A stretch of 64,000 nucleotides of DNA from a virus, in the IMG/VR virus record IMGVR_UViG_3300013307_000671, positions 1 through 64,000 of that record; one strand, written 5' to 3'. Made by a program: the position numbers and the translations under genes. This document shows, piece by piece, positions 1,512-58,596 of the stretch (its first letter is position 1; every line of letters begins with the position of its first letter). The notes beneath the pieces are model-generated. The model was given only the letters and a program-made list of their open reading frames with translations, ran no database searches and was not told where the DNA came from.

Positions 1512-1598
1512 TGGTGCCTCAGACCAGACTCGAACTGGTACACCTGTGAAGGCGAGAGATTTTAAGTCTCTTGTGTCTACCGATTTCACCACTGAGGC
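1512..1598 (-). tRNA. tRNA-Leu (UAA), copy 1
   Basis: An 87-nt class II cloverleaf with acceptor GCCTCAG paired to CTGAGGC, Leu-type D-arm, anticodon loop CTTAAAA (anticodon UAA), variable arm, T-arm CCAGTTCGAGTCTGG and an encoded CCA. It closely resembles the second Leu copy of the cluster but differs in the anticodon stem and variable arm, so it is not a recent exact duplication. Confidence 0.95.
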
Positions 1599-1705
1599 AT
1601 GAAAAGGAAGTAATCAGCTTCCTTTTAATTATATATGAATAGTTTTTTAATCTTTATAGCAGTAAATATCAATGTTTAACCACATTCAAAGTGACATTTG
1701 AACGC

Positions 1706-1840
1706 TGGTGGTTTTTGCTGGACTCGAACCAGCGACCTCTGGCCTAAGATCGAATCGTTGTCATTTGACCAGCCGGAGCTGTCTACCGAAGTAGAAACGA
1801 TCTTTTGGCGCTCGCGCTCTACCAACTGAGCTAAAAAACC
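1706..1840 (-). ncRNA. tRNA-like RNA A: tRNA ends with a four-way junction in place of the anticodon arm
   Basis: The ends are a good tRNA: acceptor GGTTTTT/AAAAACC, D-arm GCTCAGTTGGTAGAGC, T-arm GCTGGTTCGAGTCCAGC and CCA. The length is 135 nt instead of 76. Between D- and T-arms no normal anticodon arm can be formed. Instead ATCGTT pairs with AACGAT and encloses three hairpins with no unpaired bases between them: TCTAC-TTCG-GTAGA, CAGC-TCCG-GCTG and GTC-AAAT-GAC. Two of the three loops are ultra-stable UNCG tetraloops. It may be an intron-bearing tRNA, a tRNA decoy or a stable RNA of T4 RNA C/D type; the structure is seen, the role is not known. Confidence 0.6.
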
Positions 1841-1847
1841 ATTTTAT

Positions 1848-1927
1848 TGGTTGGAGAGGAAGGATTCGAACCTTCAATGACTGCCGCCACTCCTCTCGGA
1901 GATGTCTACCCCTTCCATCACTCTCCA
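1848..1927 (-). ncRNA. tRNA-like RNA B: anticodon arm replaced by a GNRA-capped hairpin
   Basis: Acceptor TGGAGAG/CTCTCCA, D-arm GATG...CATC, T-arm GAAGGTTCGAATCCTTC and CCA are intact, and the length is 80 nt. The segment where the anticodon arm should be gives only CTCC-GAGA-GGAG, a 4-bp stem with a GAGA tetraloop. It leaves no 7-nt loop with U33. It is therefore either a degenerate tRNA or a deliberately anticodon-less tRNA mimic. It sits 7 nt upstream of tRNA-like RNA A in the same transcript. Confidence 0.5.
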
Positions 1928-1930
1928 ATT

Positions 1931-2153
1931 TGGTGTCCCCTGTTGGATTCGAACCAACGCGCATTGCTATTGAGATAACACCTTCTTTACTCGACCACGG
2001 AAACTTCCCGCCAAGGCTCTGTCATTGAGCTAAAGGTTTCCTACCGGAACCTTATCAGACTTTAACTGATACGCATCGATTAACGTAAATATCTTTTTAT
2101 CTCGCAACCACTGTCAACCACAGCCTTGGCTCTACCACTGAGCTAAGGGAGAC
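1931..2153 (-). ncRNA. tRNA-like RNA C: split tRNA halves around long-range stems
   Basis: The 3' end has T-arm GTTGGTTCGAATCCAAC, acceptor strand AGGGGAC, A and CCA. A compatible 5' half (GTCTCCCT, D-arm GCTCAGTGGTAGAGC) lies about 180 nt upstream. In between are a 9-bp inverted repeat (GCCAAGGCT/AGCCTTGGC at 2122-2130 and 2010-2018), a second D-arm-like sequence at 2018-2036, and a 6-bp hairpin with a 7-nt loop (TATCAG/CTGATA). Another inverted repeat, ACCGGAAC/GTTCCGGT, joins 2160-2167 to 2043-2050. Whether this is one RNA or decayed tRNAs cannot be told by eye. Confidence 0.4.
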
Positions 2154-2154
2154 A

Positions 2155-2290
2155 TTAATGTTCCGGTTACTGGCGTCCGAAAGTGATTCTCTTTAACAGG
2201 GTTCAACGCCCGAAAGCTCCACCCATTAAAGAAACCTCTATTTATTTCTGGCGCATCTTCGCAAGATGTAGCCATCGTAAATATATCACA
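2155..2290 (-). ncRNA. Structured intergenic RNA candidate with possible pseudoknot
   Basis: No reading frame is present. A strong hairpin spans 2249-2274 (TGGC...CATCTT-GCG-AAGATG...GCCA). GGCGT at 2172-2176 can pair with ACGCC at 2206-2210, while CTTTAA at 2191-2196, between them, can pair with TTAAAG at 2226-2231, which would make an H-type pseudoknot. A competing GGG-TTCAACG-CCC hairpin exists. Transcription would come from the upstream tRNA promoters. Confidence 0.3.
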
Positions 2291-2294
2291 GATT

Positions 2295-2371
2295 TGGTGG
2301 CCCGTGCTGGGCTTGAACCAGCGACCTCTCGATTATGAGTCGATTGCTCTTACCAACTGAGCTAACGGGCC
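2295..2371 (-). tRNA. tRNA-Met/Ile2 (CAU), copy 1
   Basis: A 77-nt cloverleaf with acceptor GGCCCGT/ACGGGCC, D-arm GCTCAGTTGGTAAGAGC, loop CTCATAA (anticodon CAU), T-arm GCTGGTTCAAGCCCAGC and CCA. The paired first acceptor base pair argues against an initiator. Whether C34 becomes lysidine (Ile AUA) or it reads Met AUG cannot be decided from sequence by eye. Confidence 0.93.
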
Positions 2372-2485
2372 AAATAAAGCTTACCTGTTTCACAACTGTT
2401 AAGCTTTGTACACTTTTATAAGAGAGACTGACTTTTCACTAACAACCTAAATAAGACAAGTTTAACCAGCCATACCGGAAAACTC

Positions 2486-2562
<77 letters not shown>

Positions 2563-2605
2563 ATCACTTTAAATCAACTACTTACTCCCTCACATCAAGA
2601 ACATC

Positions 2606-2634
2606 ATCATATCAAACTCTATCATGATGCACAA
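2606..2634 (-). promoter_or_regulatory. Promoter for tRNA-Arg copy 1 and downstream tRNAs
   Basis: On the minus strand TTGTGC and TATGAT are separated by exactly 17 bp and preceded by AAAAAAGAG. The same upstream element recurs at the two other tRNA-cluster promoters. Confidence 0.7.
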
Positions 2635-2663
2635 CTCTTTTTTCAACTTTTTATTGCTTTTTT

Positions 2664-2749
2664 TGGTGCCTCAGACCAGACTCGAACTGGTACAGCCATA
2701 AGCCGAGGGATTTTAAATCCCTTGTGTCTACCGATTTCACCACTGAGGC
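2664..2749 (-). tRNA. tRNA-Leu (UAA), copy 2
   Basis: An 86-nt class II tRNA with the same acceptor, D- and T-arms as the copy at 1512-1598, anticodon stem GGGA/TCCC and anticodon UAA, variable arm with CGGCTTATGGCTG, and CCA. It ends about 30 nt upstream of tRNA-Arg copy 1's promoter. Confidence 0.95.
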
Positions 2750-2834
2750 GGTTTAAAGAGCTACCGACCATAGCTCTTTAACTTACATCTTTACATCTTT
2801 AACCATAAACTAAGCAAAGGGATCGAAGCTTTGC

Positions 2835-2910
2835 TGGTGGCCCCTGTTGGACTTGAACCAACGACCAAGCGATTATGAGTCGCCTGCTCTAACCACTGAG
2901 CTAAGGGGCC
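2835..2910 (-). tRNA. tRNA-Met/Ile2 (CAU), copy 2
   Basis: A 76-nt cloverleaf with acceptor GGCCCCT/AGGGGCC, loop CTCATAA (CAU), T-arm GTTGGTTCAAGTCCAAC and CCA. It differs from the other CAU tRNA in acceptor, anticodon stem and T-arm, so the two may have different identities, for example one Met and one Ile2. Confidence 0.93.
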
Positions 2911-2915
2911 ATTAA

Positions 2916-3077
2916 CTAACAAGAATCATCACACGGAGCATGTCCGCATGTTTTACATACTACCGGAGAGTAACAGCAACCTTCAGTAGCATAACCATCA
3001 AGTGTATCCATTTCACAATCAGGACATACACCATCAGCAACTTCACCTTTTTCTAAAGACCAACCATCTGAACACAT
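2916..3077 (-). CDS. Cysteine-rich 53-residue zinc-ribbon-like protein inside the tRNA cluster
   Basis: An ATG preceded by AAGGAGTTATT opens a 53-residue frame with eight cysteines, including CPDC and CKTC pairs plus CC and CDDSC near the end. This layout suits a small zinc-binding fold. It lies between a CAU tRNA and tRNA-Arg copy 2 and shares their transcript. I know no named family for it. A tRNA-binding or RNA-processing role would fit its place but is only inference. Confidence 0.75.
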   Translation of the reverse strand: MCSDGWSLEKGEVADGVCPDCEMDTLDGYATEGCCYSPVVCKTCGHAPCDDSC

Positions 3078-3096
3078 AATAACTCCTTAGTAAAAG

Positions 3097-3173
<77 letters not shown>

Positions 3174-4069: not shown

Positions 4070-5164
4070 TTAGGCTCGCGCCCGAAGCTGCTCTACTGCC
4101 CCGTTCAGAGACATATCACCGGAAGTAAAGTCATTGAAGACCAAACCTGCCAGAACATGAGATACGTTATTACGTGCGCCATCCACATGAACCAAAGAAT
4201 CCTCAAGGAACAGGTTAATATGGCTTTCATCAAGCATAGACAGCGCAATATGCTTAGGCCGACCATCAGCGAAGTCCGCACGGGTCACCTGAATGTTATG
4301 ATGCGCCATTGTCTTAACAATACGCATAGAAGCCGCACCACCGCGAGCCGTTAAAATCGTTGTCGCTAATGGGATATCATTTGCCTTGATTTCGTTTGCC
4401 AGCATCTTCTTATTGAAATATGCCACAACACGACTCAGTTTCTGAACCACAACACCTAATGGGCCAAGCTCCATAGGGGTATGACGATGTTTAATCTCAT
4501 TGAGACGGAACTCTTCCAAAGGCTCCAGGCCTTTAATCTGCTTTGCTGCCTGATAAACCATCTCTGAGGTAGGATCGACAATCACACCATCAAAGTCACA
4601 GATAAAGTTGATTTTATTATCGCGGTTGTTGAACATCTTCATGTTCTGGATTTCACTGATATTCTGAATGTGAACTGCCGCAACGCCACGCTTATGATAT
4701 TCCTTCGCTGAAGCATCAGACGAGGTAAACACAACATCAGCGCCTTGCATCTTATGAGAAGATGCCTGCTCAAGCCCACCCGTCCATGAGATATAGTCTG
4801 GAACGAAATCATTCACTTCATCTAACAGGTAATGATCAATACTGTTCATCAGGGTAATCGCACCCGCATGGTTAGTGTCAAAACGTGCGCTCATGCCAAA
4901 ACGGAACTTAGCCACATCACATGGAACCTTACGGCTATTACGCAGCTTGATCAGGGAAATATAAAAACCAAGTGCCGGGCCGGGCTTAAATACTTTACCC
5001 TCAGCATTCATCTGAGCAAAATAATCATTATATGCTGACAGACGATCTTCTTCCGAATGCGACTCAAATACTGCTTCCGCTTCCTTCATGTCAAACAGCG
5101 CACCCGCCGTAAAACCAAATGTCAGAACAGTATCGCTATCATTAATATTCATTATATTCACCAT
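4070..5164 (-). CDS. Cytosolic 5'-nucleotidase (NT5C1/cN-I type, PF06189-like)
   Basis: The 364-residue protein has ALFDMKEAEAVF near residue 15, GPALGFYISLIKLRN near 62, FGMSARFDTNHAGAITLMNSIDHY near 86 and SWTGGL, in the order seen in the cN-I 5'-nucleotidase family. A HAD-type motif FICDFDGVIVDPT follows near residue 188, with ILTARGG and FLEDSLVHV later. These enzymes remove 5' phosphate from nucleoside monophosphates in the cytoplasm. Its place next to a likely NMN adenylyltransferase suggests NMN or AMP as substrate, which is inference. Either of two nearby ATGs could be the start; no strong ribosome site distinguishes them. Confidence 0.8.
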   Translation of the reverse strand: MVNIMNINDSDTVLTFGFTAGALFDMKEAEAVFESHSEEDRLSAYNDYFAQMNAEGKVFKPGPALGFYISLIKLRNSRKVPCDVAKFRFGMSARFDTNHAGAITLMNSIDHYLLDEVNDFVPDYISWTGGLEQASSHKMQGADVVFTSSDASAKEYHKRGVAAVHIQNISEIQNMKMFNNRDNKINFICDFDGVIVDPTSEMVYQAAKQIKGLEPLEEFRLNEIKHRHTPMELGPLGVVVQKLSRVVAYFNKKMLANEIKANDIPLATTILTARGGAASMRIVKTMAHHNIQVTRADFADGRPKHIALSMLDESHINLFLEDSLVHVDGARNNVSHVLAGLVFNDFTSGDMSLNGAVEQLRARA

Positions 5165-5225
5165 TATGTTGTCAATAATCCGATTATTGCATGACCAGAC
5201 GACTAATGCAAGCTATTTTTTCTAT

Positions 5226-5251
5226 AAAAAAAGCATCCCGAAGGATGCCTT
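5226..5251 (-). terminator. Terminator after the lactonase-like gene
   Basis: GCATCC-CGAA-GGATGC is followed by seven T on the minus strand. Confidence 0.8.
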
Positions 5252-5270
5252 TCTTCCGCTCAGCGCGGGA

Positions 5271-6398
5271 TTAAAACTTAACGATTGAAATCCAGTTTGC
5301 ATCATTTACAGCGGTATCTTTACCAGCCGGAACACGAGAAGCTTCTTTCAGCCAACCATCTTTACCAATCGCATAGCTGCTGATATAACCGCTTTTCTCG
5401 CCTGTGGTAATCAGGAACTTACCTTCAGGATCAATCGCAATCCCACGAGGCTGTTTCTCAGTTTTCCACACGTTAATCAGGGTCAGCTTGCCTGTCGCCT
5501 TATCAACTTTATAACCCGCTACAGTGCTACTGGTGCGCTCTGCAACATACAGCCATTTACCATTAGGCGTAATTTTCAGATCAGATGCCCAAATACGTGG
5601 AGTGGGATCGCTATAACCAGCCGGACGCTCTTTACCATGCTCCAGTTTATAACTTTCTGCTACAGGTGAGGCAAACTCAGAAACTTTTACCAGTGAGCCA
5701 TCAGCTTTGCGCTCAAACTGCGTCACAATACCACCCATCTCACCAATATTATAGACGAAACGGTTATCAGGAGAAATCACGGAATGACGAGGGCCATTAT
5801 CTTTCGATGTCTCCGCAAAGCCATTGCCGATAGGTGAAATCTTACCATCTTTGCTCAGGTTTAGCTGCAGAACCTTATCTGCGCCAAGATTGCCCACATA
5901 CAGTGATTTGTTAGTGTTGTCCACAATAACGGAATGCGCATGAGGGCCAGTATGATAAACATCTACAGGCTTCTCTGACAGCTTCAGGCCATTAATTGCA
6001 TAGCTTTCCACCACGTCTTTATCGTATGACGCGCCCAGCAGATACTTACCAGATTTATCCAGAGCAATATAAGCATAGGAAGTATCAATCGGATTTACCG
6101 TTTTATTCGATACAGAACCTGTCTTAGCATCGATATCCCATGAAACAATACTGTAAGGCTTTTGGCGAACAGCCGCATAAAGATGCTTTTTATCAGGGCT
6201 GACTACTGTAGGCATTGCTTTTTTACCCGCGTCAATCTCATCAACCAGAGACAGCGATCCGCTTTTTTCATTCAGAGTGTAATGCGAGATATGACCTGAA
6301 TCAGAGTTTGATACATATACAGAAGTCTGAGCATGAGAGGCAAAACTCAGTGGCAGCAACAGTAGGACTGACTTGATTAACATATTCTTCGACTTCAT
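5271..6398 (-). CDS. Exported 7-bladed beta-propeller protein (6-phosphogluconolactonase/YncE-like)
   Basis: The 375-residue protein starts with a signal peptide (MKSKNML, a hydrophobic stretch, then ASHA just before QTSVYVSN), so it should be exported. The mature part is made of repeated blades such as SPDKKHLYAAVR, DKSGKYLLGA, SPDNRFVYNIGEMGG, TPNGKWLYVAERTSSTVAGY and DPEGKFLITTGEKSG. These are characteristic of the lactonase beta-propeller family (Pgl/YbhE, PF10282). Cytoplasmic Pgl hydrolyses 6-phosphogluconolactone; an exported version more likely acts on another ligand. It has its own promoter and terminator. It is probably acquired from a bacterium. Confidence 0.85.
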   Translation of the reverse strand: MKSKNMLIKSVLLLLPLSFASHAQTSVYVSNSDSGHISHYTLNEKSGSLSLVDEIDAGKKAMPTVVSPDKKHLYAAVRQKPYSIVSWDIDAKTGSVSNKTVNPIDTSYAYIALDKSGKYLLGASYDKDVVESYAINGLKLSEKPVDVYHTGPHAHSVIVDNTNKSLYVGNLGADKVLQLNLSKDGKISPIGNGFAETSKDNGPRHSVISPDNRFVYNIGEMGGIVTQFERKADGSLVKVSEFASPVAESYKLEHGKERPAGYSDPTPRIWASDLKITPNGKWLYVAERTSSTVAGYKVDKATGKLTLINVWKTEKQPRGIAIDPEGKFLITTGEKSGYISSYAIGKDGWLKEASRVPAGKDTAVNDANWISIVKF

Positions 6399-55978: not shown

Positions 55979-56134
55979 CTATCCTCGCTTTAAAACGCTT
56001 TTCCGGCGCTTCTGTTTGATTTTAGATTTCGGCTTACTGCGACCCGCTTCAACATCAGAAAGCTTTTTAGGCTGACCAATTTTCTTCGCAAAAGCCTTAC
56101 CGAAATATCGAAGCCTCGCTCCTTGGAGCAGTGT
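55979..56134 (-). pseudogene. C-terminal remnant of a basic protein, truncated beside iscB
   Basis: A 51-codon open frame without a start codon runs from just after iscB to a TAG overlapping the next gene's leader. It encodes a lysine/arginine-rich tail (FGKAFAKKIGQPKKLSDV, then KIKQKRRKSVLKRG). It looks like the 3' end of a gene whose 5' part was lost when the IscB element arrived. No matching 5' part is seen upstream of the element. Confidence 0.5.
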
Positions 56135-56143
56135 CTATACATC

Positions 56144-57442
56144 TTAATCATACGCATAACTATATCCGTCAAAACGATACAGCATTACGCAGTTCTTCCA
56201 GCCTATTCCTTCCACTCTCCCCTGTTTTACTTTTATATTGAAGATTCCTCTCGATCTTACCGATACCTTTCCTTTATATACTCCTTTTTTCTTCCCTTTC
56301 AATACTACTGCCTTAACCATGTCTCCCGTTTTAAATCCTCTCACTATCTTAGGGCCTTTCGCTTTTCCTCGCGGAAAACCATATTTATCAACTAAACACA
56401 TTTGCCTGCTATTTCTTCTTTCCTTCTTAATCAGCAATGGCCTTAACTTAGATGAAATATATACCTTCGCTCCCGTTGTGCCTGCGCATAATGCATCGAC
56501 ATAATGCTCCTTAGCGTAGCCCTGAGACACCCGGTTATACTTAGTCTCTGCGCCCGTTCCCGTCAGAACAGGCACCTTTAAACCTGACAGCTCTTTGATG
56601 ATTTGTTTGCGACTTATATTGACCGCTGCAGCATCTTTTAACGGAGTCTTTAACTGTGCCTTTATCTTTTTTAATAAAGGCTGGTTATCCTTCAGAAACT
56701 CCTCAATGGACATATTATCTTTCTTCTCATTACACACCCTGCAGGATAACACCAGATTGCTTATTCTGTTGCTTCCGCCTCTGCTACGTGGGATAACATG
56801 CTCTTTTTCAAATGGCACATTCTTGGCCTCACAATAGACGCAGCTATAGTGATATTTCTCAAGCAAATATGCTTTCACTTCGTAATCAAACAGCGTGCCA
56901 CGCTGATACTCAATTCCTTCAACTGCAGCGCTTTCCATCTTCTGCATATCAAACTTAACCGATTCTACCGTGATAAAACCCACAGGAGCCAGTCTAATGA
57001 AACGCTTAGACCATTCAGTTATGTTATCTACACGACTTTGAACGGATGGCGCTAACCATCCTTTATGCTTACTTCTTACGCGGTTAAGAAAACGTGGTGA
57101 TCTGTAGCGGGTTTTACGGTTTCTCCTCGACCTTCTCACCATACGACGACTATCTAAGTTGCCTTTTATTTCCTGCCCACGGTGAGTTAACACTGCCCCG
57201 AATATCGCAGACAGCCTGTTTTTACCATGTAAAACTAATCCTATTCCTGTTTGCTTTGAACCCGGATCAAACTTGAGTTCAACAGGCTGTTTGTATCCAT
57301 CTGAACGCTGAGTTAACTGTATAGTAAAAGGGTAGAAGCGTTTAACGACAGCTTTTTTGCTATGCAATAGCTGTCTTGCCCTTGCCGGATGGCAGGGCAT
57401 CAACGTCTTACCTGTTTGACTTAATACAAAAACTCTATTCAA
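56144..57442 (-). CDS. iscB: IscB: omegaRNA-guided HNH/RuvC nuclease (432 aa)
   Basis: All IscB domains are present in order. A PLMP-like N-terminus (GKTLMPCHPARARQLL, about 11-26) is followed by RuvC-I ELKFDPGSKQTGIGLVL with D59 and an Arg-rich bridge helix (RRMVRRSRRNRKTRYRSPRF, 99-118). RuvC-II GFITVES follows with E160, then an HNH domain with CVYC (201-204), EHVIPRSRGG (H215), N229 and CRVC (234-237), and RuvC-III KEHYVDALCAGT with H313 and D316. IscB, the ancestor of Cas9, cuts DNA matched by a guide in an omegaRNA encoded just upstream. The start is TTG after AAAGGA. All catalytic residues look intact. No TnpA transposase is seen nearby. Confidence 0.95.
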   Translation of the reverse strand: MNRVFVLSQTGKTLMPCHPARARQLLHSKKAVVKRFYPFTIQLTQRSDGYKQPVELKFDPGSKQTGIGLVLHGKNRLSAIFGAVLTHRGQEIKGNLDSRRMVRRSRRNRKTRYRSPRFLNRVRSKHKGWLAPSVQSRVDNITEWSKRFIRLAPVGFITVESVKFDMQKMESAAVEGIEYQRGTLFDYEVKAYLLEKYHYSCVYCEAKNVPFEKEHVIPRSRGGSNRISNLVLSCRVCNEKKDNMSIEEFLKDNQPLLKKIKAQLKTPLKDAAAVNISRKQIIKELSGLKVPVLTGTGAETKYNRVSQGYAKEHYVDALCAGTTGAKVYISSKLRPLLIKKERRNSRQMCLVDKYGFPRGKAKGPKIVRGFKTGDMVKAVVLKGKKKGVYKGKVSVRSRGIFNIKVKQGRVEGIGWKNCVMLYRFDGYSYAYD

Positions 57443-57832
57443 TTGTACTGTTCCTTTATTACTTCATTATTATTTATAAATAAGTTACCTTATTATCTTT
57501 TATGAAAAACGATGTTTTTCATAAAGTAAGCTCTCCTCGCCAAAGTTAAAAAACATTTCATGTAATACACACTGTTTTCTCCCCGTGAAAACTGTTTAAT
57601 GTATTACGACAGTAATGAAAATGGGTTTATCATTTTCGATGCGTAGAACTGGAGAAGCATCCTACGGTGTCATCTGTTTTTTAACGTAGCCTGTAAAACC
57701 AAAGTTCTACAGGCTGAGGCTGGTCAGTTAATCCAAGTCGGAGACTTGCTCAGAAAAACCAGATGGTTTTTCTGTTTCGAAAACGATGAATCCGTTTTCA
57801 TTAACAAGCCTCGCCCGACAGGGCGGGGTTAC
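57443..57832 (-). ncRNA. Probable IscB omegaRNA (about 390 nt, many hairpins)
   Basis: The 386 bases between iscB and the upstream gene have no ORF but many perfect stems, read on the minus strand. They include CCCGCCC/GGGCGAGG, GAAAACG/CGTTTTC, AGAAAAACC/GGTTTTTCT, CAAGTC/GACTTG, AGCCTGTA/TACAGGCT, GAAAATG/CATTTTC, GTAATACA/TGTATTAC and TATGAAAAAC/GTTTTTCATA. IscB omegaRNAs are encoded exactly here, with the guide at the 5' end. That puts the guide in the last codons of the gene ending at 57829, right before TAACCCCGCCC. Confidence 0.85.
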
Positions 57833-58173
57833 TGACGGTAAGGAGCATCAATAACGTCAATGCCATGTGCTTTAAAATTTTCTTTATGACGTTCAAGCGT
57901 CCGAGCTACCACTTTATCATCACTGGAGTGAAGATAAATCTTTTTCAGGTTTTTGAACTTATCAAGACGATAGTTAATCCGACCCATAATGTGCTCACCT
58001 GTAATCGAAGGATGCCCTAAGAAGTTATCCAGGTAAATAATCTCAACGGTATCCTCGTTCTCAATAACCAGCTTACGCGCAAGACGCGCATCAGACTCAC
58101 TCACCACACCATCGACATTATCCAGATAATGCTCAGCTTTACGCATATCATCAATCCAAAGACGCTTAATCAT
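57829..58173 (-). CDS. Receiver-like (cREC-type) protein, paralogue 1 (114 aa)
   Basis: RLWIDDMRK at the start, IIYLDNFLGHPSITGEHIMGRINYRL in the middle and KIYLHSSDDKVVARTLERHKE after it give the D-D...D...S order of a receiver-type Rossmann fold. It resembles the 'cyclic-phosphate processing receiver' (cREC) group with LWxDD and LDxxLG motifs. The stop codon abuts the IscB omegaRNA, and the last codons form the presumed guide. A paralogue is encoded next door. Confidence 0.65.
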   Translation of the reverse strand: MIKRLWIDDMRKAEHYLDNVDGVVSESDARLARKLVIENEDTVEIIYLDNFLGHPSITGEHIMGRINYRLDKFKNLKKIYLHSSDDKVVARTLERHKENFKAHGIDVIDAPYRQ

Positions 58174-58230: not shown

Positions 58231-58596
58231 TTACAGACAACGTGAGCGGTAAGGCGCTACATCCAATCCCACATTTCGCTTATCAAAATGAGATTTGTAG
58301 CTCAACATACGTTCAATTGCCACATCATCACTTGAGTGCAGATATACCTGCTTCAGATTCGGATAACGCTCAAGACGAAACGCAACAAAGCTCAGCAAAT
58401 CCTCGCCTGATACATCAGCATCACCTAAATTATTATCCAGATACAAAACCTCCAGCGTAGGCGCAGCATCGCGGAAAAGATAGTTCCGTGCCTCCCATGC
58501 TTCTTTTTTCCAGACTACCTTATCAGAGAAATCAGGCAGGATTTTAGACGGATCACGTAAATCATCAATCCAAAGCTCAGTAGCAACTTGTTCCAT
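58231..58596 (-). CDS. Receiver-like (cREC-type) protein, paralogue 2 (121 aa)
   Basis: ELWIDDLRDPSKI, VLYLDNNLGDADVSGEDLLSFVAFRLERYPNLKQVYLHSSDD and DVAPYRSRC parallel the neighbour's blocks. The two genes are tandem duplicates. Its 3' end (GCGCCTTACCGCTCA) resembles the presumed IscB guide region of the neighbour (GCTCCTTACCGTCAG). Enzymatic role is unknown. Confidence 0.65.
   Translation of the reverse strand: MEQVATELWIDDLRDPSKILPDFSDKVVWKKEAWEARNYLFRDAAPTLEVLYLDNNLGDADVSGEDLLSFVAFRLERYPNLKQVYLHSSDDVAIERMLSYKSHFDKRNVGLDVAPYRSRCL

What the first reader, a model, noticed from the sequence alone, without database searches (positions are those of the whole stretch)
56144..57832. Complete phage-borne IscB with upstream omegaRNA, no transposase
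All catalytic motifs of an IscB (RuvC-I D59, E160, HNH H215, RuvC-III H313/D316, two CxxC pairs, bridge helix, PLMP) are intact. The non-coding region directly upstream is densely structured. IscB loci are usually tied to IS200/605-type elements; here it sits in what looks like a large phage accessory region without TnpA. It may act as an RNA-guided homing endonuclease or in inter-phage competition.
Basis: partly seen in the sequence, partly recalled or inferred. Interest (0 to 1): 0.9.

Follow-up and report, generated by a model that had tools for sequence, protein, structure and literature searches.

The report
Phage IscB element with flank-derived guide
The phage carries a complete small mobile element that encodes an RNA-guided DNA-cutting enzyme (IscB, a relative of the ancestor of Cas9) and its guide RNA, and the guide spells out the spot where the element sits, so the enzyme probably cuts sister phages lacking it; this is a well-preserved new member of a known kind.

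Summary
56144-57442(-) encodes a full-length IscB with all five catalytic residues, and 57526-57836(-) is a HEARO/omegaRNA. No Y1 transposase was found in the 135-kb record or in a 259-kb sister contig.

The unit is a discrete mobile element, 56101-57836(-), 1736 bp. The omegaRNA scaffold starts at its left end, so the guide is the adjacent flank, the 3' end of an upstream cREC gene. The sister contig lacks the element here and carries the same protospacer (23/24 bases) followed by GCGA, an NNRR-type TAM. It carries a 92% identical IscB elsewhere. The window lacks 117 bp of the sister's sequence at the site, including a neighbour's start codon.

E. coli integrative elements carry the same element (82-84% DNA identity). 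Filled/empty comparisons show insertion 5' of GTGA at three sites, without target duplication. IscB is under purifying selection (dN/dS about 0.1).

Best reading: a non-autonomous IS200/605-like (OMEGA/ISC) element whose IscB recognises empty alleles and promotes its own retention. Cleavage and homing are inferred. New member of a known kind.

The parts
56101..57836 (-). Whole IscB/omegaRNA mobile element (1736 bp); ends uncertain by up to 2 nt because element and target share GT
   Evidence: Same ends in E. coli MIN11 and KMi029 and, at the right end, in sister phage contig L002; flanks unrelated
57837..57856 (-). Predicted guide segment of the omegaRNA (CGTTATTGATGCTCCTTACC), drawn from the flank, the 3' end of the cREC coding sequence
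   Evidence: Lies directly 5' of the scaffold start; the OgeuIscB guide lies directly 5' of its scaffold (PMC9640706); same protospacer + GCGA in the sister phage
57526..57836 (-). omegaRNA scaffold, HEARO RF02033
   Evidence: cmscan 106.1 bits, gathering 83; fold z -7.4
57809..57828 (-). Left-end hairpin CCCCGCCC-TGTC-GGGCGAGG, also part of the omegaRNA
   Evidence: Sequence; DNA fold
56144..57442 (-). IscB, 432 aa, TTG start (ATG in E. coli relatives)
   Evidence: NF040563 405 bits; Pfam RRXRR, HNH; catalytic residues; dN/dS about 0.1
56118..56129 (-). Right-end hairpin GCTC-CAAG-GAGC; one two-sided base-pair change against GCCC-CAAG-GGGC of the E. coli copies
   Evidence: Sequence comparison; DNA fold: stem present, but the stretch is not more stable than shuffles
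56097..56100 (-). Right flank GTAA, TAM-like target motif (GTGA at other insertions)
   Evidence: NNRR TAM of OgeuIscB
57829..58173 (-). Upstream cREC-domain gene; its last codons and stop (CGT CAG TAA) are partly supplied by the element (PYREHD* in sister, PYRQ* here)
   Evidence: Pfam PF20274 28.2 bits; L005 comparison
55979..56100 (-). Remnant of the downstream 72-aa basic protein gene, N-terminus and start codon missing
   Evidence: Intact as MKKINYTVPGDFMPS... at L005 5358; the window frame has a stop just upstream and no standard start

Best explanation
This is a non-autonomous IS200/605-like (ISC/OMEGA) mobile element made only of IscB and its omegaRNA. Shown here: fixed ends; insertion in relatives without target duplication directly 5' of GTGA; the omegaRNA scaffold beginning at the left end, so that the flank becomes the guide; the same protospacer with an NNRR-type TAM in a sister phage lacking the element at this site; purifying selection on IscB. 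Inferred: the RNA is read from the upstream cREC operon and processed; IscB cuts empty alleles in sister genomes or after excision; repair from a filled copy restores or spreads the element. The filled locus escapes because the guide sequence is followed there by GTCA, which is not NNRR. Moves to new sites probably need a Y1 transposase supplied in trans.
For: IscB and HEARO identity. Sister contig lacks the element at the same place and has a 92% identical IscB elsewhere. Three E. coli insertion sites with filled/empty comparison: AGTATG^GTGAAA, AATAATG^GTGAGA, GAAA^GTGAGT, the third a remnant that keeps only the left junction. Site A is uninterrupted in 30 E. coli genomes, and 32 hold most of the stretch across site B, against two genomes with a full element. 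Protospacer 23/24 + GCGA in the sister; the other 20 viral contigs with the 15-nt core match at most 19/24, close to the 17 expected. dN/dS 0.10-0.11 to relatives. TnpB of IS200/605 elements acts this way as a plasmid gene drive (PMC11870625).
Against: No transcript, cleavage or homing was measured. The TAM preference of this IscB is unknown: insertions favour GTRA, whereas the sister allele has GCGA. The phage insertion is not clean: 117 bp of the sister sequence are missing. The source of a transposase is unknown.
Confidence: 0.72

Rival explanations
1. IscB has been taken over by the phage as a weapon against competing phages or plasmids, with the element immobile.
For: Guide matches a sister phage exactly over the seed; purifying selection; the phage carries another homing-type HNH gene.
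Against: The guide is simply the local flank, as expected from insertion alone; relatives sit at different sites with different guides; the ends are preserved, which a domesticated gene would not need.
Confidence: 0.13
2. A recently inserted but inactive passenger, spread by transposition in trans or by ordinary recombination, with no role for cleavage.
For: Imprecise junction with a 117-bp loss; TTG start instead of ATG; no promoter-like signal above chance.
Against: All catalytic residues intact; dN/dS about 0.1; structured RNA retained.
Confidence: 0.12
3. A protein-only HNH homing endonuclease; the RNA is irrelevant.
For: HNH homing endonucleases are common in phages, and one is present in this record.
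Against: RuvC, RRXRR and HNH together with a HEARO RNA directly upstream define IscB.
Confidence: 0.03

Closest known systems
IscB element of E. coli integrative elements (MIN11 WP_208207773, KMi029 WP_044347479)
   Same: Same ends, HEARO RNA and IscB (82-84% DNA over the element, 87% protein); inserted 5' of GTGA; no transposase among the annotated neighbours in the stretches viewed
   Different: Lies in a MobQ/type 4 pilus mobile region, with other flanks and guides; insertions there are clean
IscB of uncultured 484-kb phage LR756508
   Same: IscB (51%) with HEARO RNA on a large phage genome
   Different: Only half identical; ends not compared in detail
OgeuIscB (PDB 7xht, 8csz, 8ctl)
   Same: Catalytic residues; omegaRNA with guide 5' of the scaffold; NNRR TAM in line with GTRA
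   Different: Distant sequence; gut metagenome; TAM of the window protein untested
TnpB/TnpA of IS200/605 elements
   Same: Guide records the insertion flank; target motif of insertion and TAM coincide
   Different: Different nuclease (Cas12-like), guide on the 3' side, usually with TnpA

Membership tests
IscB (OMEGA RNA-guided nuclease) | RuvC split by bridge helix and HNH, with catalytic D/E/H/H/D | tested here: met
IscB (OMEGA RNA-guided nuclease) | HEARO/omegaRNA directly upstream | tested here: met
   RF02033 106.1 bits
IscB (OMEGA RNA-guided nuclease) | RNA-guided cleavage next to a TAM | not testable with these tools
   Needs biochemistry; a matching protospacer + NNRR motif exists in the sister phage
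IS200/605-like (ISC) element | Insertion without target-site duplication next to a fixed short motif | tested here: met
   Sites A and B in E. coli, both junctions; site C left junction only. In the phage the right flank fits (GTAA) but the comparison is disturbed by a 117-bp loss
IS200/605-like (ISC) element | Hairpins near both ends | tested here: inconclusive
   Left hairpin significant in the window (z -4.3) but not in L016; right hairpin present in the copies folded, one compensated pair, not more stable than shuffles
IS200/605-like (ISC) element | Own Y1 transposase (TnpA/IscA) | tested here: not met
   PF01797 absent from G000 and G001; so it can at most be a non-autonomous, IS200/605-like element, not an autonomous member

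The most novel reading that the evidence does not exclude
The element spreads between co-infecting large phages by RNA-guided homing alone, without a transposase, acting as a gene drive; the 117-bp loss at the site, bounded by GCGA and GTGA in the sister sequence, is the scar of a guided cut and one-sided repair.
Probability: 0.15. Interest if true: 0.65.

Novelty: new member of a known kind. Interest (0 to 1): 0.42.

Why it matters
The natural role of IscB outside TnpA-bearing transposons is still open. This locus gives an unusually clean test: a phage with the element, a sister phage with the matching target, and E. coli regions with filled and empty alleles at three sites. It also shows one IscB element family shared between a large phage and bacterial integrative elements, which points to movement between kinds of mobile DNA.

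Tried and rejected
AlphaFold2 with a four-row alignment gave mean pLDDT 40 and was not used; no fold search was run. Named phage records hold no DNA match to the locus and plasmids none, so the phage could not be named; one neighbour protein is 34% identical to Serratia phage proteins. Tests for terminase PF03237, tail sheath PF04984 and Gp23 PF07068 found nothing in either contig (the last had no ringing control). An exact scan of viral contigs for the left end found nothing. The 20 other viral contigs with the guide core were judged chance. No solo ends of the element elsewhere in G000. A serine recombinase in G001 is not near the IscB and was not taken for an IS607 transposase.

Full report
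The protein. The ORF at 56144-57442 on the minus strand is an IscB beyond reasonable doubt: NCBIfam IscB equivalog 405 bits against a cutoff of 175, Pfam RRXRR and HNH, and matches to solved IscB chains including OgeuIscB. Reading the phmmer alignment against the residues named for OgeuIscB (PMC9640706), D59, E160, H215, H313 and D316 are present. The two CxxC pairs C201/C204 and C234/C237 are invariant in the six sequences aligned. dN/dS is 0.105 to the sister phage copy and 0.10-0.11 to the E. coli copies.

The RNA. Rfam HEARO (RF02033) matches 57526-57836 minus over all 211 model positions, 106.1 bits; HEARO is the omegaRNA of IscB (PMC9755519). The stretch folds far better than shuffles (z -7.4). 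The scaffold begins with GUCA at 57836, and in OgeuIscB the guide lies directly 5' of the scaffold, so the guide here is the flank ending ...TTATTGATGCTCCTTACC.

The element. A sister contig of 259 kb has both neighbouring genes at 89-95% protein identity and lacks the element between them; it carries a 92% identical IscB elsewhere, cut off by the contig end. Two E. coli chromosomes carry the element over nearly its whole length, and eight others hold remnants. They lie in a region with MobQ relaxase and type 4 pilus genes. Comparing E. coli loci with each other gives AGTAGTATG^GTGAAAT (filled in L017, empty in L016), ATAATAATG^GTGAGAA (filled in L016, empty in L018) and GAAA^GTGAGTT (remnant in L018, of which only the left junction remains; empty in L016 and L017). 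At the first two sites both junctions are clean, with no target duplication. Megablast finds 30 E. coli genomes with the site A stretch uninterrupted and 32 with most of the site B stretch. The element in the window is thus 56101-57836, with up to 2 nt of ambiguity from the shared GT.

The site in the phage. The left flank is the 3' end of a cREC-domain gene; the element supplies part of its last codons and the stop, turning PYREHD* into PYRQ*. The right flank is GTAAGGC, matching GTGAGGC in the sister. Between them the sister has 117 bp that the window lacks, starting at GCGA and including the start of a 72-aa basic protein gene, which in the window has no standard start codon. Whether the loss came with insertion or later, or whether the sister gained this stretch, cannot be told from two phages.

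The target. The guide matches the sister phage at 23 of 24 positions, followed by GCGA, which fits NNRR. Within the window the same sequence is followed by GTCA, the start of the element, which does not fit. So the filled allele should be spared and the empty allele cut; this is inference from the OgeuIscB TAM. Of 21 viral contigs with the 15-nt core, only the sister extends beyond chance.

Transposase. Y1_Tnp (PF01797) is absent from both phage contigs. Both records may be incomplete, so a transposase in the unseen part is not excluded. A hairpin near each end and the GTRA flank (TYAC on the other strand; compare TTAC of IS608, from general knowledge) suggest mobilisation by a Y1 transposase in trans; this is inference. 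No promoter-like signal above chance lies in the region, so transcription through from the cREC operon is assumed.

Known or new. PMC9755519 reports over 16% of IscB/HEARO fragments as viral or prophage and only a few with TnpA. IscB genes occur in named phages, with HEARO confirmed in the 484-kb record LR756508. The retention or gene-drive role is described for TnpB (PMC11870625). The finding is therefore a well-documented new member of a known kind, with filled and empty alleles that make its function testable.

Noticed in passing
L008:7680-8708 (G000 91680-92708, minus): 342-aa homing-type HNH endonuclease (phrog_559, 244 bits), a second nuclease of mobile type in this phage record.
   Followed up: no
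window 57829-58173 and 58231-58596: Two tandem genes with a cyclic-phosphate processing receiver (cREC) domain, PF20274, on a phage record.
   Followed up: no
window 4070-6398: A 7-bladed lactonase-type protein (5271-6398, PF10282, 199 bits) and a 5'-nucleotidase (4070-5164, PF06189) next to a cluster of seven tRNA genes at 1512-3173.
   Followed up: no
L018:4001-4183: E. coli 0H strains hold a 183-bp remnant with the element's left end fused to a piece of the end of iscB, an internal deletion derivative.
   Followed up: partly
L003 1410-1625 and 4748-4963: A 105-kb viral contig and a 101-kb one each carry two HEARO RNAs 3.3 kb apart, the second just upstream of an IscB.
   Followed up: no
G000, 134908 bases: Of 20 proteins scanned against PHROGs none matched a structural family, and terminase and sheath profiles found nothing in G000 or the 259-kb sister; 220 of 247 called ORFs lie on one strand.
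   Followed up: partly
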